DNA from: Branchiostoma floridae
Taxonomy: Eukaryota; Chordata; Leptocardii; Amphioxiformes; Branchiostomatidae
Assembly: GCF_000003815.2 (NCBI RefSeq)
Contig: NC_049984.1
Coordinates: 13,452,846-13,516,845 of the forward strand
Reading direction: 5' to 3'
DNA: 64,000 nucleotides
Each line of letters opens with the position of its first letter. The stretch's first letter is position 1. Made by a program: the position numbers and the translations under genes. The notes under the pieces are model-generated. The model was given only the letters and a program-made list of their open reading frames with translations, did no database searches and had not been told where the DNA came from. Positions 27,280-53,027 of the stretch are shown one piece after another.

Positions 27280-28968
27280 TTCTCAGTTAGTATAAAAATA
27301 GCAATACTTTAAAATTTCTATACGAAAATATACATATTTTTTAAAAGACCTTCTTGGCACAATATATACTTTTTTAAATGTCAGGTCATTCTTAAAAAGT
27401 CCATAACCCGTTTCATCATATCGGATGCATTTTACATCCTGTCCGACTCCTGGTTGTCCAGCCACATCGTCAGTTCACTGGCTACCAGCGACAGCACCTT
27501 CCTGGTCTGAAAGTCCTGGTACTGTCGGTAGCAGCTGCAGAAGTCGAAGTCGGTGGGGGTGACGCCTCTCTCGCATGCTGACAGCTCCACGCTGTTGGTC
27601 GACTCCCACGGGCAGGGATCGTCGGCGATAAAGTTGACGAGGACCCTGTCTCCTGCGACTACATCTTGGTAGATGGGCGCGACTCTGGACAGGCGGGGAT
27701 CGTAGTACGTGCGGGGTGTTAGACTCTCTGGTGTCTTCCTCTTCGGCTGTGGTCGGGAGTCGTCTTCGACCTCCTCCTCAACTTTCCTCTTCTGACGCTT
27801 TCGACGGACCTTAGAGGCACCAGTCGTCGTCGTCTCAGAAGCTGCCCGTTTGGCTTTGCGGTAAAGGCGGGCGGCTGGACGGACACTCCGCCCGCGACTG
27901 TGCCCGGCCGTGCCCTTCACGTCGCCTTCCCCCTGATGTGCAACAATCTCAGCTGCCTCTCGGAGCGTCGCCACAGTGACACGGCGATCATCGGGCCGAA
28001 CAGTGGGCTCATCATGCTGAGAGTCGGTTGCTAGTGAGACAAAATGGACAAAGTTGGGCGAAGTGGCCATCAGCCTCATTACGAGGGGTGATCAATACGC
28101 GTCCTCGGTCTCACCCAGAAATAATAAGCACGACTCAGATTTTGAAGCACAACATCATACTATGGATGATAACGGTATCTCTAAATGACATTGTACACTC
28201 ACACAACCTTTGAAAGGTAGTTGACTTGAATTAAATCTATAAGTGGAGAACGTGGGAGATGACAGTCTGAAATTACCTCTGTTTCCGAATGTTAGTGGCC
28301 GTGAACGTCACTGGTGACTAACCATGACTCTCGGTGTGATCCAGTTCCACACACACGGCTGGTTCAGCTGCCTCTCGGAGCGTCGTCACAGAGACACGGC
28401 GATCACCGGACAGAACATTGGGCTTATCATGATGAGAGTCGGTTGCTAGGGAGACAAAATGGACAAAGTCAGACGAGTTGGATGATAGCGGTATATCCAA
28501 ATGATACAATAGAATCTAACAACCTTTGAAAGGTAGCTGACTGAAATAAATCTATCAGTGGAGAACGTGAGAGATGACAGTCTGAAGTTACCTCTGTGTC
28601 CAAATGTTAGTGGCCGTGAACGTCACAGGTGACTAACCATTACTCCCTGTGTGATCCACTTCCACACACAAGGCTGGTTCAGGAACCAGACAGCAGAAGT
28701 CAGGACGCTCCAGACGGACAGGTGATCTCTCCTTCCCGCCATCACCCTGGCCCAAGTCTCGCACCATCGTCTCCATATCTAAAGAAAATACGCAGCAAAC
28801 TTGGAGAGAAGTGTGTCAATTTGACGCAGCAACAAGTTTGTGGTGTTCGAAAACTTTCGAATTTGACACAACACGCAGGCGCCGCGTCCATTTGTGACGT
28901 CTTGGAGAGAACATTCGAACAGCGGTTCGTTTGGGGGAAAACAATGTCACAGGGCAACTCGCAACTGT
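27280..28968 (-). repeat. Left arm of 3.3 kb inverted duplication
   Basis: This arm is an inverted copy of 29300-30590. Similarity covers the inner promoter-like region, both exons, the intron and about 140 bp beyond the stop codon. Exon C is 599 bp in both arms. The left arm is longer because it holds an extra internal segment (about 28270-28560) that duplicates the intron and parts of both exons. Confidence 0.9.
27432..28776 (-). CDS. Unknown basic protein, left copy of divergent pair (three exons)
   Basis: Family not recognised. Predicted exons are A 28638-28776 (starts METMVRDLG), B 28323-28445 and C 27432-28030. All junctions are phase 1 with GTTAGT donors and CTAG acceptors, giving about 286 aa. 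Exon C encodes a segment with DDRRVTVATLREAAEI, a strongly basic stretch (VRRKRQKRK, a likely nuclear localisation signal) followed by acid residues, then a C-terminal region with CPWESTNSVELSACERG, CSCYRQYQDF and LASELTMWLDNQE that could be a small globular domain. Exon B is a hybrid of exon C's start and exon A's end and is absent from the right copy. The ATG is preceded by TTTTCTTTAG, so a 5' UTR exon may exist. Confidence 0.62.
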
Positions 28969-29515: not shown

Positions 29516-30590
29516 ATGGAGACGATTGTGCGAGACTTGGGCCATGGTGATGGCGGGAAGGAGAGATCACCTGTCCGTCTGGAGCGTCCTGACGTCTGCT
29601 GTCTGGTTCCTGAACCAGCCTTGTGTGTGGAAGTGGATCACACAGGGAGTAATGGTTAGTCACGTGTGACGTTCACGGCCACTTACATTTGGACACAGAG
29701 GTAATTTCAGACCGTCATCTCCCTCGCTCTGCACTGATAGATTTATTTCAGTCAGCTACCTTTCAAAGGTTGTAAGATTGTGTCATTTAGAGATACCGCT
29801 ACCATCCACTTCGTCCAACATTGTCCATTTTGTCTCCCTAGCAACCGACTCTCAGCATGATGAGCCCACTGTTCGGTCCGATGATCGCCGTGTCTCTGTG
29901 GCGACGCTCCGAGAGGCAGCTGAGATTGTTGCACATCAGGGGGAAGGCGACGTGAAGGGCACGGCCGGGCACAGCCACGGTCGGGTTGTCCGTCGAGCCG
30001 CCCGCCTTTACCGCAGAGCCAAACGGGCAGCTTCTGAGACGACGACGACTGGTGCCTCTAAGGTCCGTCGAAAGCGTCAGAAGAGGAAAGTTGAGGAGGA
30101 GGTCGAAGACGACTCCCGACCACAGCCGAAGAGGAAGGCACCAGAGAGTCCAACACCCCGCACGTACTACGATCCCCGCCTGTCCAGAGTCGCGCCCATC
30201 TACCAAGATGTGGTCGCAGGAGAGAGGGTCCTCGTCAACTTCATCGCCGACGACCCCTGCCCGTGGGAGTCGACCAACAGCGTGGAGCTGTCGGCATGCG
30301 AGCGAGGCGTCACCCCCACCGACTTCGACTTCTGCAGCTGCTACCGACAGTACCAGGACTTTCATACCAGGAAGGTGCTGTCGCTGGTAGCCAGTGAACT
30401 GACGATGTGGCTGGACAACCAGGAGTCGGACAGGATGTAAAATGTATCCGATGTAATGAAACGTGTTGAGGACTTTTAAAATAATAACCTGAAATCAGAG
30501 TATATATTGTGCCGTAAAGGTATTTTAAGGAATATGTGTATTTTCATATAGAAGTTTTAAAGTATATCTATTTTTTATACGGAAGAGAAA
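29300..30590 (+). repeat. Right arm of 3.3 kb inverted duplication
   Basis: Inverted partner of 27280-28968. Similarity begins near 29300 on the inner side and fades near 30590, about 150 bp past the stop codon, in AT-rich sequence. This arm lacks the extra exon-B segment and so probably represents the simpler arrangement. Confidence 0.9.
29516..30440 (+). CDS. Unknown basic protein, right copy of divergent pair (two exons)
   Basis: Paralogue of the minus-strand gene at 27432-28776. Exon A is 29516-29654 (METIVRDLG...DHTGSNG, then GTTAGT) and exon C is 29842-30440 (after TCTCCCTAG), joining in phase 1 for about 245 aa. The exon lengths (139 and 599) equal those of the left copy, and the exon-C proteins differ at about 10 of 199 residues, with no frameshift or stop in either. 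Such conservation across two copies suggests selection or gene conversion. Features: DDRRVSVATLREAAEI, a basic KVRRKRQKRK cluster (probable NLS), a Glu/Asp tract, and a Cys/Trp-containing C-terminal segment. An AATAAA lies at 30689. No known domain recognised. Confidence 0.65.
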
Positions 30591-32838: not shown

Positions 32839-35800
32839 CTAGTCATCTTCTTCATCTTCATCTCCCTCCTCCTCTATGTCTGCAATGTCTTCCAGTTTGT
32901 CTAGTTCAGTCTTCAGTTCCTCCACGGCCCGTCTGAGTTTGGGGAGTTTTTCCACGTCCCTGCAGTCCCGCAGCCAGCGGCAGCACTGCTGCAGGACGGC
33001 TTCCTTCTGCAGGAAGAAATGCCTCCTGATCACGTCTTCAAAACCTGCCGAGACAAAAACATGCCTGGTGACTGAAAATGGCTTTGCAGGATTTGAGAAT
33101 TACTGTAGAGAGAAATACTGTATTGTATCTGCAATCTGGATACAGGATAGTACATAACTACCTTAGTGTTGACAAACAAATTGTCCTGGCATTAAATAAG
33201 ACATTGTTTGAGACTGAACTTTGATAAGTGTTGTACAGAAACTACAGTATTCTACAGTAGTAGACAAGTGGGAAGCAATAGGCAGGCTGAAGATAGAATA
33301 AAAATTTTCATGGAGATTTTAAGTTGGCAGTGAACAGGTCACTGTGAAAACTGCAAACATGAAACAACTACAAACATTCCCTTTTACAGTAGTTGGGGTA
33401 TTGGAAAAATACAAAGATACCCATTTAGCTGCTCGTTAAGGCCTTGAAAGCCCTGCAAGATAAAAATACATTTATTTATCTATTCATTTATTAGCTGATC
33501 GTTTGGTTTTTATAAAGCCCCGCAGATATGCAAATATATTCACTTAGTTGCTGGATGAGGTTTTCAAAGCTAATATATCCAATCATCTGCAAAGGAAAAA
33601 AAAGACACAGATACATCCCATTTACTGCTAGTAAGGATCAAAAATAGGTAGTACTGGTTTTAGGACAGCTGGAGGCACTGGCTATGAAAAGAAGAAAGAT
33701 TTTTATCATGGCTGGTAGAAGTAATTAGGAAGAATGATATTGTGACTACAGGCTGAATTTTGTTTTTTAAAAAGTTAGACAGTCACCATTCTAACAAAAG
33801 CCAGCAGTATGTTGTTAGATAACCAAATTTGGCACGTTTTCAAACTCTTGTAAGTCATGTGAAGAGCATGAGTAGTGTGCTAGGACCTCAGAGAAACCTT
33901 ACCAACAGGAGGCTGCCTGATCTGGTGCAGCATGGCCCATCTCACTGTGTCCACCTGCAGCTTGTTGTTGTATTTGGCACTTTGTTCCTGTGTGCAATAG
34001 GCAGAAAATATGTGTCCTGTAAAATCTGGCTGCATTTCTTAACATGGAAAAGGAAAGAGGATAATCATGTATTGGTATGATATGCAGTGTATGACTGAAT
34101 ATATTACAATGAGGGAAAAGACTAGATACCAATTGTTTACAACTACATGTAGCACTCTAGATACATTTAAAGACATTGAAGTTCATTGCACAATCATGCC
34201 AACCTGGGGCTATCAAAGTGCAGTAAATAAGATACTTACGGGGTATAGAAATAAAACAATGCTACGCTTTATCTATGTCAATAATTCACATGCTTCTTCT
34301 CTATTCTTGAAAATCTCTGTAGTTTGTCTACACATGTTTTAAGAAGAGTGTTTTACTAGAGTATTTGTACAGCTTTTTGTTTACTTTTATATCAAACTGA
34401 CTGCATTTATGGGGCATGAATATGCAATAAACTTCATTGTCATTGTCATTGTCATCAATTTGTCATTGTATGAACAAGTTTCTCCATTGCATCATACTAG
34501 GTAGAAGATGACATTACATAATGTGAACAGTACATTCTTTTTCTTTGTTAAATGTTGTGACTTTTGGCCTAGAAGTATGGTACTAACAAGAAACTTATGT
34601 AAAAATCGAACTAATGGGAAGCTCAGATGTAGACGACCATGTATCTACCAGAGCAACACCACGCTGAGCTTTTGCACTGATGATATTTTTGCATGTTTAA
34701 ACTGAAGCGAGCAGTACTGGTAAATGTTTACCTCAGTCTCTGCTGTCCCCTTCATCCCATCATACCCTGGTTCATTGTACATGGGGTCTGAGATGAGGAT
34801 GAGGCTCTGGATGGACACCAACACCTACAGCAGGAGGGGGGGGGGATGTGTCGTCAAACATGTATCTATGACCTATCATATGCAATTTACCTACTATATA
34901 CATGTACTACGAACAGAATGCAATGCCTAAAGCACTACAGTATCTGTGATTTCAGTTTAGGGCATGTTTGTGATTGTGGCGCTGAATGGCCGAGTGGCTA
35001 GGCTAGTGGACGTGAAATGGAAAGGTCAGAAGTTGAGAAAATTGGGCGCCTCAAAAAAAAAAAGATAATAAGAACAGCAAGTCCAATGTGAGAATCTGGT
35101 ACTATTCAAATTTTCAAGGTGCACCGTCTGCACCCAAAGTGTGTTTAAATAATTCTAGAGTAGGCCCTAATGTGATAACCCAAAATATCATCCCATCCAG
35201 AAAACCTGTATCAAAGGTCATCATGGCCTAGTTATGGCAAGAAAAATAGGTTGGAGAGGTAAAAGGCAGTGTCTAGTGTGCCCTAGACATAGTGGATTAA
35301 CAACCCGCCACCACTATGGCCTCAAAAAAGCTTTAGGACCATCTTTCCATTAAACTGTAATTGTTGTAAATAGGTGATGGCTATTTCAGCACCACTGACA
35401 GAGCAATCTAACCATGGTCAATGTGACTTTAAACTTTTCTTTGTCGTATATCTACTTACCTGGTACAGAGTTGATGTTTTTGGGTTCCACTTCTCACTGG
35501 CGTCCCCTCCATGCCACGTACCCAGCAGACTCAGGCACACCTTCCCATCTGCATACAGGTTAGGGTTGAACCTAAACATGCAATAAAACAACCAGGAACA
35601 ACAAGATATCACAACTCCATGAAATATTTAAACTCTCTTTTATGCCTTATTTGGTTGTAGTTCTTTTAGATCAACTATGCAAGTAAGGTTTTGATTAACA
35701 TAACATGTGTCCCTTGATACCTTCCTGTCACTCTATGGTGGGCATGACTTGCATATGGAAAATATATAACTGTAAAAGCACAGATAGACATACCAAAAAC

Positions 35801-38800
35801 AGTTCCTCCCCATATATTAGTAAGGCCTACCATGACCTGGACTGTCGACTGTGAATAGCGACTTCTCCTACCATCTCTGACCTGAACTTCCAGCCACTCT
35901 AGCAAGTCTGGCCTTTGCGGTAATTTTTCGTTGCACTCAAATAACTACAGACATACGGCAACCCAAACAAACACACGCAAATAAAACATAGGCTCTACAC
36001 ACAGATCAAACAAACCACAACCAATGGAATAGAACCGTACTTGAAGGCTTCTGAAATTGTTGAGTTGACAATGACAGTTGATGAATACTCTCTGTACATT
36101 TCGTATATCAGGTTGAGTGGAAATAATCTCTAACCTGACAGTGCCATTGCCAGTAGTGATGAGTTTAACCACAGGAGCCCTGTTTGGGTAGCCATCAGGG
36201 AAGTAGACATCAAACACAAAACAGCCCAGGCTGTAGGGTGTGTCCACAGGACCTGTCACCAGCGCCCGCACCATGTCCATACGGTCCTCATCCTGGGGAG
36301 AAGGAGGAAACCTGAATTACTATTGCTACTGTATCAGATCTTATGGCACATCTGATAACGTTTGATACGGGTGTTCCAGACCAATTTGTTATCTAATGGC
36401 ATCCAATGGACTTCTTCTTTTGTCCCACTGGCTTCCATAGAATTGTTGAACATTCAGATACCAGATTCGGACTGATTTTCAAATTGATGTTGGTGCTTTT
36501 CACATTAAAATGTGTTTTTTCTAGGGTCTGTACGACATAAAAAGAATACATCATGGTGTATTCTGCATCACCCAAGGTCCAAGCTCTCACATGGGTGATA
36601 TGGAATACACAGTGTAATATTCTCTGTCTACTGCAGAGATGTGCTACATGTACTTCCAGCATGCAAAACAAAAGCAGCCATCACCAATCAGTCACTTGAC
36701 TTACTGACTTCGTTGGCCGGACCTATCTTAAGGGAAAATGACCCCACTGACCTGTCGGACGAAGACGGCCGCCCCCGGGTGGACCGGCAGGTTGGACTGG
36801 AGCTGCTTGATCTCCTTCATCAGTGCCTTGACCTTCGGTGACCTTGGATCCAGCGCCTCCGAGGCATTTTGTTGGAAACTGTGGTAATCCTACAGATGAT
36901 ACATGATGTACATTATTTGATGCTGAATAAAAATGTGGAAGCAGTGAGGCAGTGTGACCACTATGGCATATTGTTTCCCACCAGTTCAAATGAGTAAGAT
37001 GTATTTCCTTCATTCACAAAGACCAGAAACTTATGCAACATGGTGGCCACACATTAACAGAAATTACTGCACCATAGTTTCCATCTTCCTAAAGCACATA
37101 GATAAGCTTGTAGAGTACTGAATCTTACAGGATACATTTCCTTGAACATATTTGCAGCGGTGGATCAAAGACGTTGTAACTTAATATACAACGTCCTTGG
37201 GTGAATTTAGAACCTGTTGTGCAAGGGCTGACATTTTGAAGCTTGAACACTTTAAAGAAGACACTCTGGAGTGGGTGTTTGCTAAGAAGATGTTCAGGTA
37301 CATCATTTACAGAAATTTACAGGTACAGAGATTGTCAGGTACAATCTAGGTCACTTCAGATCTATAAATTGACTAGCAACTCAGGACTAATGAATGTAAA
37401 GCCCAACATGAACATGTTCCTAGTAAAAATTTGAGTTTTGTGCGGCATGTTTATGGGAATTTAATAATAAAATGGTCCATAGTAGACACTTGTATGTGAG
37501 TTACCTGCAGTTCAGCTGCATCAAACCTCATGTCCCCCAGAGCCAGGACATACTTCTCAGCCAGCACAACTGCATCCAGCTGCACAGCCTCCACCTGCTC
37601 CACCCAGCTGGGCAGGTGGGAGCCAGGTGTCACAGCTGGGGCCTCCTCTACAGCTGCTTCATGCAGGACATTCATCTGTGCAACATCCAGACAAGACAGC
37701 AGACAGATGAGACAACAATCAGCACTCATGTAGCCAGAAACATGGGATCAGTAGGTATCATTTACTGGCTGCACACTGGACTTTGAGGATCTTCATACAT
37801 TATCATGTTGCCTCCAATGCTCCAGAGCAGCAGAGTGAGGTTGCAGGACCTCAGTCTGTACTTTTGTAAATAGGGGGTTCTGAGGGGTACAAATGTAGTA
37901 GTCACATACTTTACATTGGGTTTCTAGCAAGGTAATATGATATAATATAATGTTAGACCTTCATGGTCATACCATTGTAATGTAGGATCAAGTAAGCTGT
38001 CATTGTAAAGGGTACGTAATGAAAAACTGTTCCAATAACACATGTACATAATACTAAATAACTGATAACAAAATAATACCTCTTCCAGCATCTTCTGGAA
38101 CTGTTGCATCTCAGTAGGGTCGATGACACTGTCCCGGACCAGCACACTGTAGGCCTTCTCCATGTACTTGGGGCTGTAGTCTGTGTCTGTGGACATGCTC
38201 ACAATGAAACCATCTTTGTCCAGCGCCTCTTCCCTACCGATTCTCAGGATGACACGCACAATCTGTAGCAGCAGCTGCCGTGGGTTGAAGTTATATCTGA
38301 GGGAGGATCAAAATTTAGTTTGTTCCGCATAACTGATAAATGTTTTGGCCACACACCAGGTTCCTACAGCAGGTACAAGCTGCGTAAGACTGGACTGATA
38401 GGTCTGATCTACTCACATGGGGATGGAGTCTTACTCTTTTTGATAAATGTGAAGGGTTCTTCAATGTGGTCAAAGTGTGATAGGTAGAGAGCAAAAGATT
38501 GAGGTTCTCCTCAAATATGGGACACACATACAGAATGGTAAAACTGTACAAGTTCTGTAGGTTAGACATGGAACCTCTGACAATTCTATCTTCCATTGCA
38601 TTGATGCACACAGAACTTCTCTATAATGCTATGAAATTATTGTTTTTGTTTTTCAATTAAATGCTATTTCAATGACTGTTCCACATTTAAGTAGGACTTT
38701 GATTTTTACTATTCACAGTAAAATGGTAAACAAAACTGAAAATGGTTGCCTTTAATCTTATCTTGTTAACAGTGATATTTCTGGATACTTTCCAGATTGC

Positions 38801-41800
38801 AGGTAGTGTGTTGCTTGATGATATTCTAATGTATGCAATCAGAGAAACACAACTTACTTCTCCATGTCCTTGACCTTCAGTTCACTTGCCTTGGGCCCAC
38901 AGAGAGCTCCGATAAACCCAATCACCTGGAAAAGACAATACCTGGTGTTTAACAGGCGCTAGGCAGAACCATTGGAAGCAGCTGTGTCAGATAACTAAGC
39001 TACAGCATTGATTCTGGCATATCTTTCACCAAGAGCATGCCAAAAGTCTGGTTTAGCCCTCATTTATCGAACTCTAAAGAGAGGTTTTTGGAAACCATTC
39101 TGAATTGGAGAAACACTGAATTGAAACAGATAACAAAGACAAAATTTCTTAATCTCAACATAATTATATAAAAAGGGGAGCAGGGAACTAGGGGCTTATA
39201 GCTTAACTTGATTTGTTTGGGTCTTGTATCAACTGCCACTGACTTCATGTTTGACAGAACATTTGAGAAAACTTTCTATTCACTATATAAAATCGGTGAT
39301 CACATACATGTATAAAGTTTAAAAAAGCACCTGGACAATGGCATGCCCTCTTTCTTCTGAAAGGATTTCATTGATATATTCATAATTGTAGCTTAAATGT
39401 AACTGTTACAGTATCTTTATACCAATACATAAAGGTCAAATAATACAGCAACATTAGTGTCATGACAGCTGTAAATTACGTATTGATCACACAGAGTGGC
39501 AGTACTCACAGCAGAGGCAGATCTCTGGGACAGGGGAGCTGTGGTGAAACACTTGCACACTTCCTCGGACTGGGTCAGCAGGTCAATGAGCCCCAGGGTA
39601 CTGTTAGCCTGAAACAAATATGTCATAGGTCCCTCAACAGCCCTGCTAAATCTCACAACCCATGGTTATAATTAAACTGAGGAAAATTAATCTTGCATTA
39701 CCATGTACAGTCCTAACAAAATTCAATTTTGGCTGATCAGACAAATACTGCTTAACAATGCAAAATCAAAATGTTCCAGGCCAGGTACTGTCAACATCAT
39801 ATGCTGAATATTCAGATACACATTATATACAAGCACAATTTTCTGTTTTAACAGAAAAGAGGAGACTTCGCATTCACTGACAAGAGACAGCAGATTTTGT
39901 CTGAAACATCTGTTTATGTACCAGGTTCATGAAGCTCTTGCCAACACGTTCTTCATTTGTCAGGAACTTCTGTTTCTCCTCCCTCTCCTCTATAGACAGG
40001 GCTTTCCAGCTAGCTTCTGTGAAAGGAGAAAAGAAAAACATCCTGTTATACTGCAGCATGCAATCATTGTTACATGCATAGTTATAGGCATTTTCCAAGT
40101 TTTCAAGTTGGTGAGAGACCTAAATAATGTATGGATAAACTTTTCAGAACACTGTTATATGTCACCAAACCTCACATCAGGAGACGATATCTCATGATAC
40201 TAAGGACATCATTTTTGTATTTGGTAACATTTTAAAGAGATTTAGCTTTAAGTTTGTGGGGATTTATTCTTGTGTATAAAATGTTTGCAGTGGTTTTTAA
40301 GTTTGCGACTTAAACAAGGGGGCTCCTTTAATATTGTAGTGAAGAGGCTACCCAAAAATCATGAACATAAAACCTATCTGCACATTCCCCTTTTACGGTA
40401 ATCAGGAAATCAGAGGAAGATCTGAAATGAACAGTCCTGACCATCCTCCTTGGCCTTCTGGATCTTCCTGACGTTCGCCAGTCTGGCCAGGCTGTCGTGG
40501 AGCTGGTACAACAGGGTGTCCAGGATCGCTCCAAGGAAGGCCTGCAGACAGAGGCAAAGGGTGGGTCAGTAGTACTGTAAGGCCGAGATGGAGGTGTCGT
40601 GGGTTCGAGTCCTGGCATTCTTTTTATTTTACCACAGTCGTGACTTGGAATTAACTATAAGATAGAATCACTGGAATCATTAAACAGCCTGGTAGATACA
40701 GTTACCTGCACAACATGAAGAGAAACAACTTGTGTCACAGAGCAGACATTGACACTCAATCCTTGTTCATATTAAAAAAACATCTAACAACACACATCTA
40801 ATAACACAAACATGCCGTGTGTTTGATATATTCAGACTTTGTGTGCTATAACCGCATGCCTGTAGAGAAGGTGTGTTATGCTGAAGGGCAATTATACCGG
40901 CTATTCAGATACAGATATACAATGCACAAATGTGATCTATTGCACTATGAAATTTGTCAATACCTGGAACTTGTCGGTGCCACACATGTTGAGTACAGAA
41001 GCCCTACAGTCCTGCCACTGCCACAGACTCTCCAGCAACTTGGCAATCTCAAACCTGCCATTGGACAAAGCTGGTTTATGTGGATAGCTCACAAGTGATC
41101 AATATGGAGTAATAATGACTGGTGGTTATGGCAAAATGGAGCTTTTTCATTAGTCATTAGTTCACTAATTCTTTCCTTACCTTGACCCATATTTGTCAAA
41201 GTCATCTTTGTCCACGTCTAGCCCCTCCACAACATCCACACTGACGTATGTGTGCAGCAGGGCAGGCCCCAGCCCTGTCTGTACACTGGGACAGGTGTGC
41301 ACCATGGCTGCCAGGTCTGTCATGATACCTGTGCCCCAGCCTTGGGAACTATGGAAACAGAAAACTGCATAAGTAAAGGAGGCTTAAGGCCACACAGTGA
41401 AAAGATAGCGGTGACAAATTAATAAATGTTCCCTCAGTACAAGACTAGGCCAGAAAGGGTTACCTGCGCAGTAACATAGTTTTTCATGACAGAGATTTTA
41501 CATACACTATCTCCGTAAAAACAGTCAGTCCTCTGGACGCTAGAAGCTATGGGGAAAGGATGTTTCAAGTTTTGCAAGTGAAAGGGTTCTGTAGTACAGT
41601 ATTGGTAGCAATGAATTGCAAAATCAATGCATATTCTAGGTGCCATGTATTGTAGTGGGGAAGTCACTCTGAAAACTACAAAAATAAAACCAATGCAAAT
41701 GTTTCAAGATTTATAGTACTAGAGTGCAGTTTGACATGACAAAAGTACAATGTATTAGACATGTTTTACCCTCTCTTCCTCTTGCCTGACTCGGTGAAGG

Positions 41801-44800
41801 ACAGCAGGGTTCCCACAATCTTACTGGCAGGGATGGGGCCTGGCATCAGGTCTGGGCGCTCCAGCAGGGTCACACAGCAGTCCACAAATGGGGACAACTA
41901 AATAATGAAATATCACAGGTGTCATTTGGAGAAAAATACAAGTATGTGGTAATTGTGGGTGTGTATTAACCAGTTTACATATTGTATGGTAACTGTATTG
42001 TATGGGGATACCATCTGTGTAGGCAGACGCAGACGCACACAAATTCACACACATACCCACACATGCACACGTGCGCACACAAACACACACACAAAAACAT
42101 GTGCACACACACAAGGAATCTCCATTAGGCTACTGTAGCTTCTATCTCACCTGAATGCCCTGGAGGATGCTGGGATGGACCACCATGGAGTTGGTGACCA
42201 CAAACCTGAACCATGTGGCCATGTCCTTCACCAGGAACTCAGGCAGCTGGGAGAACACACGCTTCTGCTGTCTCTGTACCTCTGTCTCCTTCAGACCCTG
42301 CTGACAATATAATGTGAACAGAAATGAACACATGCTTCTGCTGTCTCTGTACCTCTGTCTCTTTCAGACCCTGCTGACAATATAACAGACACAGACACAT
42401 TTGTTGTAGGTATGATGTTGATGTCATAGAGTTTTAAGCAGGCCATGACAAAACCAATCACCAACAAGGACATAACTGTTGAAGCATTTTCATTGACAAG
42501 ACAGTTGTTTGATACATGAACAATTATCGTGGTAAATCCTAATGTTCATTCAGTCACTGACAAAAGACAGTCAGTAAGCAGATGCTTTTATTGCTAAATT
42601 TTATGCAGTTGTTTGAGTAACTTTTATCTTGCAATACAGAACTAGTGTAAAAAGATACCTCTATATGTAGACAGTTATTGGTCACAGTTCCTTACAAACA
42701 TTTCTTGCGTGACTTGACCCTGATGGCTACCTGTGAGAATGAGGAAGTTTGTACCTGCTGACAGGTGTCCAGCTGCAGCTGGAGCCACCTGGACTGGGAC
42801 AGGTAGAACTCCGTCACACCTTGTACGAACACGGGGTCATTCAGGCAACAATCCCAGGTCGTCACAAGCAGCTGGGGAAAAAAATATGATGTTAGACCAC
42901 AAACATTCTCTTGTTGCTTACTGTTGTTATTCAAACTCAACTTAAATAGTCAAGGTATTGTAGCTGGATAAGTTTGGACTTCTCAGCTGTGTTATGAACT
43001 GATGAGACTTCCGACCATCCACTGATAGAACAGTCAGTATAAATACATGTTAAGCCTTGCACAGAGTTTAACAGATGGAGAGAAGGTTACAGGCTATGCA
43101 TTGTCCTTCATTGAAGAATGGATATTTCTTCCCATTCATAAAAATTTGGGCCTGTCTGTAAGTTTCTTTAATGAAAATGGCGCTTTGAACAGAGTCAGAC
43201 AACATTGTGTAGTAAGCACTATGTCACATAAGTAAGATTTCAGTAATGACAGAATGACCAACCATCTGAATCTTCTTGACCATCTCCTCCTCAGCTGTTC
43301 CCTGTTTGGCATTCAGGTGCACCTGGATGTCCCTAAAGGACAAAAAAGGTCAAAGGTTATTTTCTTGGAAGAAACAAAAAACACAAGTATGTGATATTCG
43401 GGCTGGACAATGACAAAAAATAGTTGCCCTTTTGATGACATGATTGAATAAGACAAACGATTCTTAGTGAATATACAGACATATGCAATATAGGGATGTA
43501 AAAACAAGATTGTTGAATAAGATAAGCATTTTTAGATGTAAATGTTGAGGTTGTATCAAACCTGTTCAGCCTCTGGTGATGGGCCAGTGCTGGTATCAGA
43601 CCAACGTTCAGGGCTCGCTGGGTCAGGTGGAAAATCTCTGTCATGAAGTTGAATTGACCTTGAAGTTCCTCTGGAACACGACACTTTTCTGCACCTTTCG
43701 ACTCCTCAGATACTAAGATACAGTGGAAATGAAGATAAAGTACAGTTAGCAGATTACAAATACTGTTGTCATTAAACAAACCATATGCATAATGTTAAAA
43801 TTGTTACAGACAAAATGGTAATTGTTTTGTTCTCTTATTTTAGTCACCTTTATCAATATGAGGTATACTAATAATGTATTCATAATAAATCTGTTGATAG
43901 TTATGCTGTCCCCATTGTTCGTTTGTCTAATTATGTAATATAGTATCTGACATTAAAACACCTTAACTTGGAAACCGATCCTCTCCAAGAAGGCTACCTG
44001 TCCAAATTGACCTTTTCCCCCCAGCTGGTCATGTTGGGCAGTATTTGTCAATAACTGTATTCTAACCTGGATACTGCTATGATAAACATGTCTGTGCTTA
44101 CCTATCTGTCCTCCTGCCAGACATGTCTCAAACTCATAGTTGAGCCGGCAGGGCTGTGACTTGGAGTAGGCAGGGTCCACCTTGGCCAGCTTGTCCTGCC
44201 CTCCCCTCACAATAGGCATGCAGAGATGGAGCAGCACCGCACTCAGGTTTAACATGTAGCCTGAGAATAGGAGCACAATTAGTCATAAGATCAGTGCTTT
44301 ATAAACAAGAACTCAGAGACCTCATACCTGTCATATTTATAGAGCTAACATTCTGGACACCTGCTGATATAATGCACTCATTTTCTAATTGGTGCAAAAT
44401 AAGGTCCATTGATTTTTTTTCAGGTCCGTTTTTTCAGACTGGTCCAAGAAGAAAAAAAATGGTTTTGTACCAGTACAACGTACATGTCCCTACCCCTAGT
44501 AGGACAGGGTGTAAATCTTACCATCCCCACAGGCAGCTTGCATCTGCTGTCCCATCTGTGGACTCACGGTCGTCCGCAGCTCATTCATATTCAAGATGGC
44601 AGCAATCCACGCCAGAACGGTCTCCTTGTGCGTCTTCATCATCCTGCGGAAGGTCCCGTGCACGACCTCGTGGATGCGGTGCAGTCCTTCGTGTACGTGC
44701 TGCTCTACGATCCGCAGGTCATCCACGGTTGGTTTGGGGAACCCACGCAGGGACATGAAGGGAACTGCAGTAATAATATTAGGATTATCGTCGGCTGTAG

Positions 44801-47800
44801 GCTTCTTACAGTCTCCTACAGCCTTGGAAATATATATCTTTGGGACGCTCTAACTGGGCTGAGGTTTCCACTTTTGAGGGCAACTGTCAGCCTTCAGAGA
44901 TTCAGCTTTACCACGGCAACTGATATTTAGAGAATTCTTTGATTGACCTCAGTCCAGTTTGTATTATATAGGCCGCTGGCATGGCTATGCTAAGAGAATG
45001 GCTTTGTTACAGTCAATGATATATCTAACAGTAATACATGCAATACTAAACACAAAAAATGCTGATAATAAAAAAAAAATACAAACTTGATAAAAACAAG
45101 ATGTACTGAAAAAACAGCATGCACTAACTTTCACAGCATTATACACACTGCTATAAAACAATGTATCATACATACGGGTGGCAGGGGAAGGGAACATGTA
45201 GCGCTCCATTGGCACAATGGTCGTCAGTGACAGCAGGGTGCCCAGGATGGACTTCTGCTCAAAGTAGATGCCCAGGTTGTGGCAGCCCTCCTCCACCTCC
45301 CGGTCCAGCGCTGCGGCCATGATGGTGGTCATCCCCGGCTGGGACAGGACAGCGTCCAGCGCGGTCAGCATGGTGCCCTCCTGGAGAAGGATCTCATCCA
45401 TTCTGGGGCGAGGTGAAAGAAGGACCAAAATTGTAGCTCAACAATCAACACAAAAGTCAACACAAAAAATGATGATTTTGGTTGATCGTATCCATGTGAA
45501 TACTTTGTCAACTGTTTTGCATAATATACCATTGGAAAGCTTATTCCTTGCCCTTTACCATGATCATAGATTCGTAGGTTGAGCGCCAGGGCTACATATA
45601 GCCTAGAGTCCAGGCTAGGCTGCATACTTGTACATGTGTCTTAGTAGGTTGCAGAAGAAAAGAGCCAAAATTTTCTTTGATCAAATGTCAATTGTTTGTT
45701 TTGATTGATTTCGTGTAACATGCAGCTTATTTCATCCCTGTGTTTGCACACAAACTTTGGCACCCCAAATTTTGTCTGTTACAAACAATATTTTTTCCAA
45801 CACAAAATTTCAAAACTACCGATAGGTTATCATCCTTAGTTATAGACAGTGTGCGACCTTGTCTGAAACATTCTGTGAGGTGTAAGAGATACCAGATCAG
45901 TACCTTTTGACAGTCTTGATTCTGTCTACAGCCACTTTGACCAGCTTCACCATGGTGGGGTGGAAGGACTTGTCATGCACTGCCTGATCCATCATGGCTG
46001 CCAGCAGACCCTGGGTGACATTCACTCCATCATCTGACCAGCCAGCAGCTCTCGACAGGAACAAGTACAGGGCACCCTGCAGAGATCAAGGCACATCAGT
46101 GACAAGCCTAATAGCAACTCCATCATTACAAGTAGAAGGTCAGAAAAACATAATTACAACACTTAATTACAAGCTATAAAATTCTTAAACATGTATCATC
46201 AGAGACATTTTCATTATCTATCTAACACTTAGATGTTAAGAATATGGTGTACTAGTATACTTTGGTATATATCCATAAGTAAACCTAGGCAAATATTTGG
46301 GTGCACCAGTGCACCAGTGCACCCACAGAAAAAAAATGGGTGCACATCTCCAATTTTGGGTGCAACTGGGTGCACATACACCCAGTATTTCGAGCCCTGA
46401 GAATTTATACTAAACAAATGTAGTTCAAAAGACAAATAGGTACTAAGGATTCTAACTCTAACTCACCTCATTCCCACTTTTTCCATCTGACCACAGGTCA
46501 CCTTTTTCCTCACTTTTCCCCTTCAGTTCCTCTAACAAAGCCGGTACCACGAGATCCTTCACACATTCCGCTAGAGTGCCCAACACTTCATTGCCGTTGT
46601 CCCTGAGTATTGCTTCACATTCCCCGTAACACTGGCACAAGAACTTGACCTTGTCGTACTGCCACCTCATTCGTCTGTCAAAGATTTCCACCACCTTCCC
46701 CACCATGTCCTCCCCTGGGGTGGGGAGCTCCCCAGGGGTCAGATACAGCACCTTAAAAGCCTGGGCCTTTGTGTTTCCCTGTGTGGCCAACTCGACCTTG
46801 ATATCAAAAACCTTTGACAATGTTGACAGCAGTAGCTGTTCAAGGGGGACCTCCTTTGGGGGTGGTTTTGGCTTTGCTTTCTGAGTTTCCTTTGATGGCC
46901 CTTTTGTTTCCCTATTTATTGCAACAGATCTATTTTCCACTTTCCCTGTGTCAGTACTCATAGCCTGTAGTGCTGTTATCGACTGGTTGGTAGCTGGTTG
47001 ATCTTCTCTTGTTACTTTAGACTCTTTTCCTCTTGCTTCAGTAGGTGTATCCAGTTTTTCCGCAGGTTTACTTTTGCTGATAGGCTTTTGTTTATCTAGG
47101 TGTGTGTATGAAGACATTGTCTGGACTGGTTTTGGAGTTTCACCATTATCTTGAACTGCTGGAGTGGATGTTTGTACATTCTGATCATCTGGTGCAGGCG
47201 GAAAGGTACGGTCTATACCTCCAGACAGTTGTCCCAGCTTTGCAAGCCTTTGAGCGCGAAGTTCCTCTCTGCTTGGACCTGTAAATGCAGACACATCTAG
47301 GTAACGAAGATGTCAGATCCAACGAACTAGGTAATAATCCCTTTGGATGCAGAAGCCACATGTACCAGTTCATATGTTAGCACCCGATCTCTAATCATCT
47401 TTTGCACAACAGATCATAGACATACACTGTAGCAACATGGAACCATTAGGTATGACTGTTAAGGAAAAGTAAAGATTTTTCTTAGCCTGTATCAGCACCA
47501 TTACCAAGTTGCACTACCATGCAACAGAGCTTGGTTATAAACCAAGGTAGCCTGGTATCCAAACCTATTATAGCTGCGGAGTGCGGAGTCTCTCTCAAAT
47601 ATGTGAGAGGATTAAGAGACTCAGCAGCTACAATAGGTTTGGTTACCAGGCTGAACCCAAGGAGGTCTTGGTTGGAGCGAGTCAGGAAGGACTTTGAGGT
47701 GTGCGACCTCACCAGCATGGATCCGCTGGACAGATCTAGAGCTGCCTGGAAATCTGGTGTAATGACTGGCTGATTTACTGGGCACCCTTGTGTCAGGGAC

Positions 47801-49057
47801 CCCTGCATCACTCAATGATACTATAATCAAATACTAGACACTACTACTAGTACTACAGCATCGATTTCCACCTTTTGCACACTAGTACTTCCCAGTGGTC
47901 TGCTTGTACCTTTCAGCAAAGGTAGCAATGATCATTTTGGAAGCAGACACAAGCTGCAAATGTCCAACACACAGGAGTCAGTACATACCGGTGCCTGTTG
48001 TTCTCGCTGGCTCCCTGTTCCTGCCCAGCATCACCGCCAGGCCCAGCACACCCAGCGCTCCCAGGAACAGTGCCAGTCCCGTACCAGACTCCTTACCCTG
48101 AGATGGTGCCTGTTCACCTCCAGGCTATGGTGACAGAGATATACGGTAGATTAATACACTGTTCATCAGAGAAAACAAAAGCTGAAGCAATGATCGTAGA
48201 ATAGATCTTGCAGCATCCCGTTTCAAAATGATAATCATTAATGCACAGGTTTAGACTTTTAGAATAACGTATTGAACAACTTTATCCTATCGGTATTTAT
48301 TGTGATCTATTGTTCTTGTGTGCCAAATAAGCTTTAGGTGTGTGGTAAAATGATGTCCCTACAAAAAAAGCCGACCGCACCTCAGAGGTCTACAAAGGAG
48401 GCTAGCCATACACTACCTCATCCTCAGCAAAGATTTCCTCTTCCTCTTCGAACTCTTGATCCAGCTGCTCCACTGGGCCAACTCCATCATCGGTGCTGAA
48501 AATCAAACAGTTGTAAACAGTTCTTGTTCAGACCAAGCTTTGCTTATGTCTCATCACGGGCCTTTACCTTTGGCATATTGCCCACAATGCATCTTGCGGC
48601 TCATGTGCAGTAGGAACCATGAACACGCTTACAAACACCTCAGGACATTTTATAATATGATGGACAGAACTAGAAGGACTGTGGGATTGTGTGTGACTGT
48701 TTTAAATAGAATGTAGCGTAATACTTTCTGCATAAATTTATTTGAAGTTCATGTGTGTGTGGGGGGGGGGGTGCACGTTGCATTGCACTACGTAACTTAC
48801 GTAAGTTCAAAACCCAATGATTTTTAAATCCACATTTACCATAAAATACACAACGTACGTGTTCACATGATATCTAGTATGAATGGAAAACCATGCTCCC
48901 GTTACCCCAAATTAAATTCTTTCACTTCCGGGTTTCAGGAGAATACAGACGTTTACATCAAAATTAAAGAAATCAGACTACATAGAACTCACCTGGAACA
49001 CGCGATAGAGCACCACAAAACCAAACAGAATACATACAAGACCCACGGCGCTCTCAT
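32839..49057 (-). CDS. Membrane-anchored UBE4/UFD2-core plus E2 (UBC) fusion protein, 27 exons
   Basis: Exons (high to low): 49057-48993, 48495-48417, 48124-47989, 47278-46467, 46076-45904, 45402-45176, 44764-44522, 44260-44102, 43712-43562, 43332-43263, 42871-42755 (or 42731), 42297-42151, 41897-41770, 41348-41181, 41054-40964, 40541-40442, 40016-39922, 39608-39510, 38925-38858, 38296-38080, 37675-37505, 36889-36752, 36292-36135, 35571-35460, 34824-34732, 33987-33903, 33044-32839. All 26 junctions keep frame, giving about 1435 aa. Order: signal peptide 1-21, acidic segment, TM about 62-82, UBE4-like N-terminal segment ([14 protein letters not shown]), UFD2 core about 365-1115 (for example [45 protein letters not shown]), linker, UBC about 1205-1370 with NPN and catalytic Cys about 1283 ([15 protein letters not shown]), acidic C-tail. 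No U-box is found. Likely cytosolic-facing ubiquitin chain-building enzyme on the ER or secretory membranes (inference). Confidence 0.88.
34430..34470 (+). repeat. TTGTCA microsatellite after AATAAA (retroelement 3' tail-like)
   Basis: GCAATAAACTTCATTGTCAT is followed by further TTGTCA hexamers. Short tandem units directly after an AATAAA-containing segment are typical of the 3' ends of some non-LTR elements. No reverse transcriptase coding sequence is visible next to it. It lies in an intron of the E4-E2 gene. Confidence 0.45.
34978..35062 (+). mobile_element. tRNA-derived SINE head with A-tail
   Basis: GCGCTGAATGGCCGAGTGGC contains a perfect type-2 tRNA (Ser/Leu-like) A box, TGGCCGAGTGG. 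The B-box region is degenerate, and the unit ends in GGCGCC followed by a run of A. This fits a retroposed tRNA-derived fragment, not a working tRNA gene. Confidence 0.5.
40578..40622 (+). mobile_element. tRNA-like fragment with perfect B box
   Basis: GGTTCGAGTCC at about 40604 exactly matches the tRNA B box, and a weak A-box-like AAGGCCGAGATGG lies shortly upstream. The distance and missing acceptor-stem pairing argue for a SINE-type remnant in an intron. Confidence 0.35.
42027..42113. repeat. CA-rich microsatellite
   Basis: Interrupted (CA)n tract of almost 90 bp in an intron of the E4-E2 gene. Open frames through it are low-complexity artefacts. Confidence 0.85.
42261..42384 (-). repeat. 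Tandem duplication of an exon 5' end with its acceptor site
   Basis: 42261-42311 and 42334-42384 are 51 bp direct copies with one mismatch. Copy 1 contains the real NAGNAG acceptor (GTCAGCAG) and first codons ([12 protein letters not shown]) of exon 12 of the E4-E2 gene. Copy 2 lies just upstream in the intron and carries a second acceptor plus the same codons but no exon body. Confidence 0.85.
44805..44960 (+). repeat. Dispersed repeat shared with 53.1 kb, copy 1
   Basis: Contains 'ggctgaggtttcca', 'ttttg.gggca', 'ctgtcagcc' and a terminal 'ataggcc', found in the same order at 53105-53262. Non-coding, in an intron of the E4-E2 gene. Confidence 0.5.
46297..46385. repeat. Cluster of GGGTGCAC / GTGCACCC motifs
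   Basis: The palindromic core GTGCAC recurs at least five times within 90 bp in both orientations, around an A8 run. Simple or foldback repeat in an intron of the E4-E2 gene. No function is evident. Confidence 0.55.
47549..47652. mobile_element. Foldback (MITE-like) element
   Basis: The arm agcctggtatccaaaccta.. (47549-47576) is inverted at 47625-47652 with about two mismatches. An inner GAGTCTCT/AGAGACTC pair extends the hairpin. The arm ends resemble those of the element at 11842-11931. It lies in the intron between the TM exon and the UBE4-like exon. Confidence 0.65.
47989..49057 (-). other. N-terminal exons encoding signal peptide and TM helix of the E4-E2 protein
   Basis: Exon 1 gives [20 protein letters not shown], a classic signal peptide. 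Exon 2 gives a lumenal acidic run ([15 protein letters not shown]). Exon 3 gives a hydrophobic helix, [17 protein letters not shown], followed by RNR, so the positive-inside rule places the rest in the cytosol (type I topology). Junction phases are 2, 0 and 1. The phase-1 end (ACC G|GTATGT) joins exactly to exon 4 (TTTACAG|GT CCA AGC), which continues into UBE4-like sequence. The phase match is the main evidence that these exons belong to the same gene. Confidence 0.75.
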
Positions 49058-49524: not shown

Positions 49525-52500
49525 ATGCCGAGAAAACAAAGAAATCGGTACAGGAGATTTAATTTTGGGGCAAGCCGAGTCAACAACAAAGGCGCGGTGG
49601 AAGGAGACCGGTTGTTGTTTCAAGGACAAGACACTTCTTGTGGTAGCGCACAGGTAACGCCTTACTTATCATCTTCTAGAGATAGAAAACTGTAAAATTT
49701 GCCGAAATGGTGACTGAGCCGACTGTTTTGCATCAGTCATGAGTTTTCGGGTGCCAGCTTCTTTTGTTCTCAAACTTCAGTGAAGTTGGTATGATATGCA
49801 TTGTCTTCTTAAGATGGCGCCTGTCTGGCTTGGTGTGAATCGCATTGTCCGAGCCACATGGCGTTTATGGCGAAGTTTTAGTCACACAAGATTGATCAAT
49901 CTCCGTTTCACCTTTCTCTGGGCGATTAATTTCTACATGAATATAATCACTTAGAAACTAAAACTGCTGATGTTACAAAATTTTCGTGTCGTCCAATTAA
50001 AAGTCAAGAAAAATGGAGATAGGAGATTAAATCCCTATTTAGTATTTTTATCCATGTCCTTTTAATTCAAATTTCCTTGCCTTTTCTACCCCCAGAAAGT
50101 TGCATACCATGATTTTTTTTAATTCTTCTGTTGCAAAAATTATGTAATAGAAACATGCTCTAGTACAATATTGTTGTTGTTGGTAAATATTTTAACTGCT
50201 GGCTCAAATTTATTTAAAGTTTCATTTTACAGTCTGTTGGCAGCTTAAAGTAATGTGTGTTTTTTTAGCTGAAATCATGCTGTTTTATAGGCCTTAATCC
50301 CTCCCAAGTCCCAAGTAATCAGAAGTTAAAATTTCCTATTAACTTTGTCTGACTTTTGCAAAGTAATGAAGTTAGTAGTTGAACTTAGGATTTTAGTTAA
50401 CTAGATTTCCCCACAAAGGTGTTGACATGGGTTTCCAGGTGCTGATATGGCAGAAAATAGCAAACAGGTTAAAACAAGGAGGTTAAAATAAGATAACGTC
50501 CTTGGTTTAAAAACACATAACCTTGGGAAGTGCCATCACAAACTTCTTTCAGAGGTCTTGCTTTGACAGAATTCAATATACCATTACTTTGGGACCAGGG
50601 TGCCAGACCGACAGAAGCATGGCAGTAAGCTGGTTTCTTTGACGGCCCAAGGCAGCCTGCTCGAAGATCTAGAAATAGTGCTCCACTGCCTGTTTCGTTA
50701 CCAAGGGCTGGCAGAACCCCCGTATTACTAAATTAGATCGGTGGGCAGACTGCATTGACTTGATTGAGCAGCGAAGAAACTGCCTGCCACCCTGGTTACC
50801 AAGGTTATGTACTTTTTGCAGACAATGATACTCAACCAAATTTGTTCTTGTCCATGTCTTCAGACAATGCATGCAGTGGCTCTTGTGGGTGATGCTGTGC
50901 CACAGAGCCAGGGCTGGTGTGGAGGGGACAGCAGTGCTGCTCAGACTGGCCCGTCTCCAGCAACAGCACAATCCTCAGGTGAATTGAATGAAAACCTGAA
51001 ACATGTAGTTACCGCAAAAAAACCCAAAGGTAGTTAATCAGCTGTTGTGTTTGTCTTTGTGTGAGTCTACTCTGTAGTCATTTGAATATTGCAGAATGGA
51101 AGCATGTAAGGTGATGTTTGGAGAATTGCAAGTATAGTTTGGCTCAGGTCTAGTGGTGTTGTAGTTGAGAGCCAGGAAGACTCTTGGCTACACACACACA
51201 GTTATTTCAGGTCGTTAGTGGTACCTTCTTACAGCTTGTTACAACAATGTCCAGCCAATTTTATCAGACTCTTGTAATTTTATATGGCATTGTAGCGAGG
51301 GAGTGTGTTTAGGCTTGTTGTTATTGTGACCACGGACAAACACCTCCTGCAGTTGTTTTCTTTGTCTGCATTCACATACATGTGTACAAAATAGTATTTG
51401 AATTGAATTATTTGGATAACCTTTCTTTTAAATTACAGCAAGTGATAATCAAGTGTCAGTGAGTCAGGAGGCAGGCAAGATGTCAGTCCTACTTGAAGAG
51501 GATCTAGTGACCAAGTGGTGCAGTGCCAAACAACAGCGCGGCTTCGTAGAAGACAAAGACTTTATCAGCTACCTCCTGTTCATTGTGAGCGAATACGAGA
51601 CCATGACAGGCACCTATGTGCTTCAGCCCGCCCCTACTCCTAAGAGCCCAACCAAACCAGTAACAAGACAGCAGGCATCTAAGAAACGGTCATATCTATT
51701 TGATGAAGTAGATGATGGAGGCCAGCAGAGAGCCAAGAAAGGCAAGAAGAAGAGACAGAAGCCGTCAAAAGTAGCTAGAGCAGCATCACCTCTGCCTGAG
51801 GATGTGGTACCTAGACAGAGTCCCGAGAATGAGCAGCTTCCTGAGACTTTCTTTGAGGACAATCCTAAGAAGCTTCCTGAGATTTATGAGAACAATCCTA
51901 AGAAGGAGCAGCTTGCTGAGATTTTCTTTGAAGACAATCCTAAGAAGCTTCCTGAGATTTATGAAGACAATCCTAAGAAGGATCAGCTTGCAGAGATTTG
52001 TGAGGACAAACTAAACAAGGAGCAGAGTGCAATGATTTCTGACATCAAACCTAAGAAGGAACAGCTTGCTGAAGTTTTTGGCAAGGACAATTATCAGAAC
52101 GAGCGGCTTACTGAGATTTGTGAGGACAGTCCACTAGATTTATCTTTCAGCTCGCACAAAGAAGAGGGCGGGGTGGCTGGAAACACACCAGAAGACACCT
52201 CCTGTGTCAGTGAGCTACAGAAGGTCCTCACCAATGTGACATCAGGTGTGCAGGGTCAAATCGCTTCACCTGAAGAAGTCATCCTTGACTTCTCCACGAA
52301 GAAAACCAGCCCCGATGCTAATGCCAACATAGCAGACAGATCTGTCTTTGCAGAGAAGAAGAAGCGGGAGTTTCCGTGTGATGTCTGCGGGAAGGTGTTC
52401 AACAGGGCTCAGCAGCTGACTCGGCACAAACGCACTCACGGAAAAGACAAGATGATCCCGTGTGACGTCTGCGGGGAGGTAGTCTCAGGTAAGGCGTGGT

Positions 52501-53027
52501 GCCGCCACAGGAAGACTCATGATCAAGGTCAAGTCTTCCAGTGTCCTTGGGAAGGCTGCAGCCTGGCTTTCAAGGATAGGAAGCTGTGGCAGGACCACAT
52601 GTCCTTCGTACACAAGGGTCAGAGCTCCGTGCAGTGCACCTGGATTGGGTGCGACAAGACTTTCCCTAAACACTCCCTAATGGAGCGTCACCTCAAGGTC
52701 CACGTCACTCCCAAACGCATGTTCTCCTGTCCCGTATGTCCCAAGGTGTTCAGACATAAGCCTAACCTGAGCGTGCACATGCGGGTACACAGTGGGGAGA
52801 CACCCTTCAAGTGTCCCCACTGTGAGTACAGGGGGAGACAGCAGAGTGCTCTCAAGTGGCACATGAAGAAGCACCACGACACTGTCGTCACATCCTTCGT
52901 CAGCTTCAAAATAGAGGATGCTGCTGCCGTATCTGAACCAGATGACCTGGCCAGCAAACTAGCAGAAAAGATGTGGCAAGAGACAAGTACAGGCTCAACT
53001 GGACTGCCACTTCTGTCATACATGTAA
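49525..53027 (+). CDS. C2H2 zinc-finger protein with acidic tandem repeats and PLDLS motif (three exons)
   Basis: Exons 49525-49653, 50864-50978 and 51439-53027 join in phases 0 and 1, giving about 610 aa. Exon 1 gives a basic N terminus, MPRKQRNRYRRF, partly like the RRKQ motif of NuRD-binding zinc-finger proteins. A segment near residues 99-140 (DLVTKWCSAKQQRGF...) is followed by a Lys-rich likely NLS (KKGKKKRQK). Residues about 214-311 hold degenerate acidic/lysine repeats, immediately followed by PLDLS (about 313-317), a consensus CtBP-binding motif. Six C2H2 fingers follow between about 395 and 561, some of the wider CxxxxC kind (CPWEGC, CTWIGC). Probable nuclear repressor. Orthology is not recognised. 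Confidence 0.88.
51834..52127 (+). repeat. In-frame degenerate coding repeats (ED-NPKK-LPEIY / QLAEIF units)
   Basis: Repeating coding units with the cores FEDNPKKLPEIY and KKEQLAEI, some nearly identical at DNA level (aatcctaagaagcttcctga occurs twice). All copies keep the frame, which suggests recent expansion by slippage or unequal exchange within exon 3 of the C2H2 gene. Confidence 0.85.

What the first reader, a model, noticed from the sequence alone, without database searches (positions are those of the whole stretch)
32839..49057. A UBE4/UFD2-type E4 core whose U-box is replaced by a BIRC6-class E2 domain
Seen: exons encoding blocks characteristic of the UFD2 core (SLWQ...; [26 protein letters not shown]) run in frame directly into a complete UBC domain with catalytic Cys ([15 protein letters not shown]). 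Known: UBE4A/UBE4B end in a U-box that recruits an E2; BIRC6 and UBE2O are the large E2/E3 hybrids. Inference: this protein carries its own E2 where its relatives would recruit one, so it could elongate ubiquitin chains without a separate E2, a distinct E4-E2 hybrid class. I do not know of a described protein with this order.
Basis: partly seen in the sequence, partly recalled or inferred. Interest (0 to 1): 0.93.

Follow-up and report, generated by a model that had tools for sequence, protein, structure and literature searches.

The report
Predicted membrane-anchored E4–E2 ubiquitin enzyme
A lancelet-like genome appears to carry a gene whose protein joins a ubiquitin-chain-lengthening scaffold to its own ubiquitin-carrying enzyme, in the place where relatives keep a docking domain that borrows that enzyme, so one protein may do a job normally shared by two; no transcript has been seen yet.

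Summary
On the minus strand, 49057..32839, 27 exons with 26 GT-AG introns splice in frame into a 1435-aa protein. It holds a near-complete Ufd2P_core (aa 475-1115, E 8.7e-100), then a UBC domain (aa 1195-1347) with predicted catalytic Cys1283. The E2 scores best with BIRC6 (248-255 bits; UBE2O 132-150, UBE2Z 112-118). No U-box was found in the protein, the window or its contig. The same genome holds a UBE4B with U-box and BIRC6-, UBE2O- and UBE2Z-like E2s; no UBE4A was found. Exons 1-3 encode signal-peptide-like, acidic and transmembrane-like stretches. Best reading: a membrane-anchored E4-E2 hybrid in which a class-IV E2 took the U-box's place. Not shown: a transcript across exons 20-21, activity, membrane placement, or a second species. 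Two adjacent genes remain the main rival: exon 21 opens with ATG and its acceptor is fourth-weakest of 26.

The parts
48993..49057 (-). exon 1: start codon and signal-peptide-like segment (aa 1-21)
   Evidence: Kyte-Doolittle 1.9 over aa 1-24; its codon score is not coding-like
48417..48495 (-). exon 2: acidic stretch (aa 22-48)
   Evidence: codon score coding-like
47989..48124 (-). exon 3: transmembrane-like segment (aa 61-84)
   Evidence: Kyte-Doolittle 2.27
46467..47278 (-). exon 4: N-terminal region; opens with [14 protein letters not shown], which by eye resembles the UBE4B start motif
   Evidence: no in-frame ATG ahead of the motif in this exon's open frame; tblastn of this stretch did not find the UBE4B motif on C14
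45904..46076 (-). exon 5: N-terminal region before the core
38080..45402 (-). exons 6-20: Ufd2P_core (aa 475-1115)
   Evidence: end of exon 10 uncertain by 18 nt (43263 or 43281)
37676..38079 (-). intron 20 (404 nt), the E4-E2 junction, phase 0
   Evidence: no AATAAA or ATTAAA inside, one AGTAAA at 37766
37505..37675 (-). exon 21: linker and a segment aligned with the BIRC6 stretch just before its UBC domain (aa 1116-1172)
32839..36889 (-). exons 22-27: BIRC6-class (class IV) E2, UBC domain aa 1195-1347, acidic tail and stop
35535..35537 (-). codon of the predicted catalytic cysteine, Cys1283
   Evidence: aligned to the GKVCLS of BIRC6

Best explanation
One gene encodes a predicted single-pass membrane protein: signal peptide, short acidic luminal/outer stretch, transmembrane helix, then a large cytosolic part made of an N-terminal region, a complete UFD2/E4 core, a linker, and a class-IV E2 of the BIRC6 kind in the place of the U-box. 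Most likely mechanism (inferred): the E1 charges Cys1283 with ubiquitin; the Ufd2 core holds ubiquitylated substrate or partner proteins; the tethered E2 passes ubiquitin on directly, without recruiting a separate E2. Shown: the DNA, reading frame, domain content, no U-box found, conserved catalytic region. Inferred: single transcript, membrane topology, charging, E4-type action, and an ER quality-control role.
For: In-frame 27-exon model with 26 GT-AG introns. Near-complete core and UBC. No U-box in the protein, none among 13 genome matches on this contig, best U-box-like tblastn hit in the window E 0.96. E2 scores best with BIRC6, with GKVCLS and the TWHG tryptophan aligned to human BIRC6; class-IV loops LA and LB, with an LB Trp that masks the catalytic Cys, are described in PMC4705383 (passages). 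Exon 20 probably splices onward: its read-through tail scores non-coding (-1.02 against +0.63 for exon 20), while exon 21 scores +0.69. Intron 20 has an ordinary length for this gene, 404 nt among 126-858. The core half alone would lack an E2-recruiting module. Hydrophobic segments at aa 1-24 and 61-84. No match to exons 1-3 elsewhere in the genome at E up to 1.
Against: No transcript evidence. Exon 21 begins with ATG at the acceptor, and an in-frame ATG lies upstream at 37729 without splicing. The intron-20 acceptor is 4th-weakest and the donor 7th-weakest of 26; 165 of 1062 AGs and 75 of 1098 GTs in the locus score as high or higher (true sites included), and other acceptor-like sites inside the intron score higher, e.g. 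37879 (6.5 against 3.9). The core is only 25-28% identical to recalled UBE4A and UBE4B, the genome's UBE4B and Ufd2; both 5-row trees are unresolved with long branches. In plain identity the E2 is only a little nearer BIRC6 (47-48%) than UBE2O-like (43.5%) and UBE2Z-like (43.3%) E2s, over fewer columns for the latter two. No poly(A) hexamer in intron 20 is weak evidence: AATAAA and ATTAAA are also absent after the stop down to 31800, where only variants occur. Exon 1 lacks a coding-like score. One genome only; no relatives in viral contigs, where none would be expected.
Confidence: 0.6

Rival explanations
1. Two adjacent same-strand genes: a U-box-less E4-core gene, and a stand-alone BIRC6-class E2 gene starting at exon 21 or just before it, perhaps with read-through transcripts.
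For: Exon 21 opens with ATG; an in-frame leader ([18 protein letters not shown], from 37729) lies directly upstream with a near-neutral codon score (0.03); the intron-20 acceptor is weak.
Against: Only 404 nt would hold a 3' end and a promoter; the exon-20 read-through tail scores non-coding; the E4 half would lack an E2-recruiting module; phases match.
Confidence: 0.2
2. One protein, but the E2 acts as an E2/E3 hybrid like BIRC6 or UBE2O on its own substrates, and the Ufd2 core is only a scaffold or membrane adaptor with no chain-elongating role. (It shares the one-protein premise with the best explanation, so the odds overlap.)
For: Class-IV E2s belong to large multidomain proteins (PMC11354881 passages); yeast Ufd2 has a U-box-independent role (PMC4582114 passages); the core is strongly diverged.
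Against: The core is intact nearly end to end and keeps the block aligned to GPKCGELKVKD of yeast Ufd2; no assay either way.
Confidence: 0.3
3. The signal/transmembrane exons 1-3 belong to a separate small gene, and the E4-E2 protein is soluble.
For: Exon 1 has a codon score that is not coding-like; intron 3 is among the longer ones (710 nt).
Against: Exon 3 ends in a good donor (8.1) in the phase exon 4 needs; exon 4 has no in-frame ATG ahead of its opening motif.
Confidence: 0.2
4. Assembly error joining two loci.
For: None found; no read data available.
Against: Both parts lie on one 28-Mb contig with a continuous exon chain, and the genome searches gave no second near-identical copy of either half.
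Confidence: 0.03

Closest known systems
UBE4B / yeast Ufd2 (U-box E4 enzymes)
   Same: Ufd2P_core nearly end to end; an N-terminal stretch that by eye resembles the UBE4B start motif
   Different: No U-box found; E2 in its place; predicted membrane anchor; 27% identical to the same genome's UBE4B over the compared part
BIRC6 (class IV E2, E2/E3 hybrid)
   Same: UBC domain with catalytic block, a BIRC6-like stretch before it; 48% identical to the same genome's BIRC6 E2
   Different: No BIR domain found; joined to a Ufd2 core; one intron position shared in the aligned part
UBE2O and UBE2Z (other class IV E2s)
   Same: GTW tryptophan and GKVC block; about 43% identity
   Different: Lower scores: 132-150 and 112-118 bits against 248-255 for BIRC6
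UBE2J1/UBE2J2 (membrane-anchored E2s; recalled)
   Same: Predicted membrane-tethered E2
   Different: Those are small, C-terminally anchored E2s without an E4 core (recalled, not tested)
Biomphalaria glabrata 'ufd-2' BGLB026024 (PMC6548493, passages)
   Same: Reported with Ufd2P_core and no U-box
   Different: 938 aa; its authors suspect annotation; sequence not available here

Membership tests
UFD2/UBE4 E4 family | Ufd2P_core | tested here: met
   335.4 bits, model 1-626 of 628
UFD2/UBE4 E4 family | C-terminal U-box | tested here: not met
   none in the protein, none of 13 genome matches on contig C6, window tblastn best E 0.96
UFD2/UBE4 E4 family | ubiquitin chain elongation activity | not testable with these tools
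   needs biochemistry
Class IV E2 (BIRC6/UBE2O/UBE2Z) | UBC domain with catalytic Cys | tested here: met
   UQ_con 80.4 bits; Cys1283 in GKVCLS; activity itself not tested
Class IV E2 (BIRC6/UBE2O/UBE2Z) | LB-loop tryptophan near the catalytic Cys; LA-type insert | tested here: met
   TWHG and [12 protein letters not shown] align without gaps to human BIRC6; loop roles from PMC4705383 passages
BIRC6 | BIR domain and giant scaffold | tested here: not met
   no BIR match in 1435 aa; the genome's BIRC6-type E2 lies on C1
E2/E3 hybrid enzymes (works like) | transfer to substrate without a separate E3 | not testable with these tools
   sequence only
Single-pass membrane protein | signal peptide plus transmembrane helix | tested here: inconclusive
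   hydropathy only; no dedicated predictor, no localisation

The most novel reading that the evidence does not exclude
A third architecture of self-contained ubiquitin enzyme beside BIRC6 and UBE2O: a membrane-anchored E4 that replaced its E2-recruiting U-box by its own class-IV E2, probably acting in membrane or ER protein quality control, and possibly standing in for a UBE4A that was not found in this genome.
Probability: 0.4. Interest if true: 0.82.

Novelty: new variant of a known kind. Interest (0 to 1): 0.64.

Why it matters
U-box E4 enzymes work by borrowing an E2. A natural protein in which that docking domain is exchanged for an E2 itself would let one test directly what the Ufd2 core contributes: holding ubiquitylated substrate, rather than activating a recruited E2. 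It would add a new kind of self-contained E2 hybrid, link E4 function to a membrane, and give a one-chain system for chain-elongation assays.

Tried and rejected
A candidate extra exon inside intron 20 (37879..37799, 81 nt, in frame) was considered: its acceptor scores higher than that of exon 21, but its codon score (-0.11) is below those of exons 2-27, so I left it out; it would keep the frame in any case. Orthology to UBE4A or UBE4B: blastp 121 against 144 bits, with recalled human sequences, the UBE4B one partial; tree unresolved; left open. Absence of UBE4A rests on a recalled human query and on the Pfam U-box search, both of which score only the best candidates. Scans of viral contigs gave no relative; the bacterial and archaeal genome collection was not scanned, and no eukaryote collection was on hand. 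Searches aimed at a printed E4-E2 fusion were (one found no paper; one listed 10 of 16); no listed title or start of abstract describes one. That library lacks most subscription papers.
Full report
WHAT WAS CHECKED. From that size, and from the 68% identity of its UBE4B to recalled human UBE4B over the compared part, I take it to be a lancelet, probably Branchiostoma floridae; that name is my recollection, no call states it.

GENE MODEL. Reading the minus strand I placed 27 exons from 49057 to 32839. All 26 introns are GT-AG, the phases match, and the product is 1435 aa with one stop, at the end. Pfam gives Ufd2P_core over aa 475-1115 (335.4 bits, E 8.7e-100, model positions 1-626 of 628) and UQ_con over aa 1195-1347 (80.4 bits); the only other family listed at E up to 1 is UEV (20.3 bits, below its cut-off of 27), a UBC-fold relative. 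The predicted catalytic cysteine is residue 1283, codon 35537..35535.

INDEPENDENT CHECK OF THE MODEL. A spliced aligner that I wrote was run with the genome's own UBE4B as guide (itself read with recalled human UBE4B as guide). It returned 29 pieces. Of the 15 exons that encode the core (6-20) it gave both ends of 9 exactly as in the manual model (8, 9, 12, 15-20), one end of 4 (7, 10, 13, 14), and missed 2 (6, 11). Many of its other pieces look spurious, among them those for the U-box part. For exon 10 it chose a donor 18 nt upstream of mine, so those six residues are uncertain. Codon scores of exons 2-27 are reached by at most 1.6% of 2146 overlapping open 81-nt intron windows; exon 1 by 27%. 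The training set includes these exons, which favours them.

IS THERE A U-BOX? The genome-wide Pfam U-box search gave 13 matches, none on contig C6; one is the C14 UBE4B (only best candidates are scored). tblastn of two U-boxes (the genome's UBE4B and recalled UBE4A) against the window gave nothing below E 0.96.

THE E2 PART. Against solved structures the C-terminal 320 aa score 248-255 bits with human BIRC6 entries, 235 with an entry named BIR repeat containing ubiquitin-conjugating enzyme, 132-150 with UBE2O-type entries, 112-118 with UBE2Z, and at most 60 with other E2s among the 60 of 275 sequences shown. The block around the cysteine, the FNPN asparagine and the TWHG tryptophan are conserved in the alignment. 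In plain identity the lead of BIRC6 is small: 47-48% with human and own BIRC6, 43.5% and 43.3% with the genome's UBE2O-like and UBE2Z-like E2s over fewer columns, and the 5-row tree is unresolved. [quoted passage not shown] Exon 21 contains a stretch that aligns with the region just before the UBC domain of the genome's own BIRC6, so that exon seems to come with the E2 module. The phenylalanine by which UBE2D-type E2s contact RING and U-box domains (recalled) has no counterpart in the YPNRAP stretch, which fits an E2 that does not need such a partner; this is inference.

THE E4 PART. Against solved structures the core finds yeast Ufd2 (93 bits). Over the compared segment it is 27% identical to the genome's UBE4B, 28% to recalled human UBE4B, 25% to recalled human UBE4A and 28% to yeast Ufd2. 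The tree is unresolved, with a very long branch for the window gene. Exon 4 opens with [14 protein letters not shown], which by eye resembles the start motif of UBE4B (recalled human; QMRRRRLARLAAGG on C14), but tblastn of the window stretch did not find that motif. Several core introns lie where the genome's UBE4B has none, by comparing; I made no count. I cannot say whether the gene derives from UBE4A, UBE4B or an older copy.

PARALOGUES IN THE SAME GENOME. C14 holds a UBE4B with U-box (893 aa aligned in 19 exons, N-terminal part not modelled). C1 holds a BIRC6 E2, 85% identical to human BIRC6; C13 and C16 hold UBE2O-like and UBE2Z-like E2s. Ufd2P_core matches lie only on C14 (8) and C6 (2). 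No UBE4A was found. PMC3087547 (passages) states that most animals, sponges included, have both UBE4A and UBE4B; the word Branchiostoma is counted 0 times in its held main text.

THE JUNCTION. Intron 20 is 404 nt, within this gene's range of 126-858 nt. Its donor ranks 7th-weakest and its acceptor 4th-weakest of 26; 75 of 1098 GTs and 165 of 1062 AGs in the locus score as high or higher, true sites included, and other acceptor-like sites inside the intron score higher. It has no AATAAA or ATTAAA, but neither has the stretch after the stop down to 31800, so this says little. Reading on past exon 20 gives a non-coding score (-1.02), exon 21 a coding one (+0.69). Against this, exon 21 begins with ATG at the splice site, and an in-frame ATG lies upstream at 37729. 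Sequence alone therefore favours one gene without proving it.

THE N-TERMINUS. Residues 1-24 and 61-84 are strongly hydrophobic, with an acidic stretch between and arginines after the second. This is the look of a type I membrane protein with the E4-E2 part in the cytosol. The genome search with aa 1-140 matched only this gene's own exons at E up to 1.

MECHANISM. I commit to a membrane-anchored E4-E2 hybrid: E1 charges Cys1283, the core holds ubiquitylated substrate, the tethered E2 transfers ubiquitin without a recruited E2. Steps from charging on are inferred. A U-box-independent role of Ufd2 in yeast (PMC4582114, passages) is a reminder that the core may do other things.

NOVELTY. Seven literature searches aimed at such a fusion listed no paper whose title or start of abstract describes one; three others served background. 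Passages of a survey of ubiquitin-system domain architectures (PMC4327156) do not name Ufd2 (0 occurrences). The library lacks most subscription papers, and I could not search animal protein databases, so an annotated relative may exist. PMC6548493 (passages) reports a snail ufd-2 protein with Ufd2P_core and no U-box, which its authors put down to annotation; it is a lead. The parts are known kinds, the combination is not one I know; hence 'new variant of a known kind'.

Noticed in passing
27432-28091 (-) and 29670-30440 (+): Two open frames with nearly the same protein in opposite orientation, about 1.6 kb apart: an inverted duplication beside the gene.
   Followed up: no
7626-10322 (-): 898-aa open frame with C2H2-zinc-finger-like motifs and a homeodomain-like stretch that resembles Teashirt (recalled).
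   Followed up: no
51432-53027 (+): 531-aa open frame with several C2H2-zinc-finger-like motifs, divergent from the E4-E2 gene.
   Followed up: no
G000, whole genome: No UBE4A was found (recalled human query and Pfam U-box search), though most animals are said to have it (PMC3087547, passages).
   Followed up: partly
G000 C13 3.93 Mb and 4.60 Mb; C10 0.25 Mb and 3.65 Mb: Pairs of U-box loci with nearly equal scores and opposite strands, perhaps duplicated genes or uncollapsed haplotypes.
   Followed up: no
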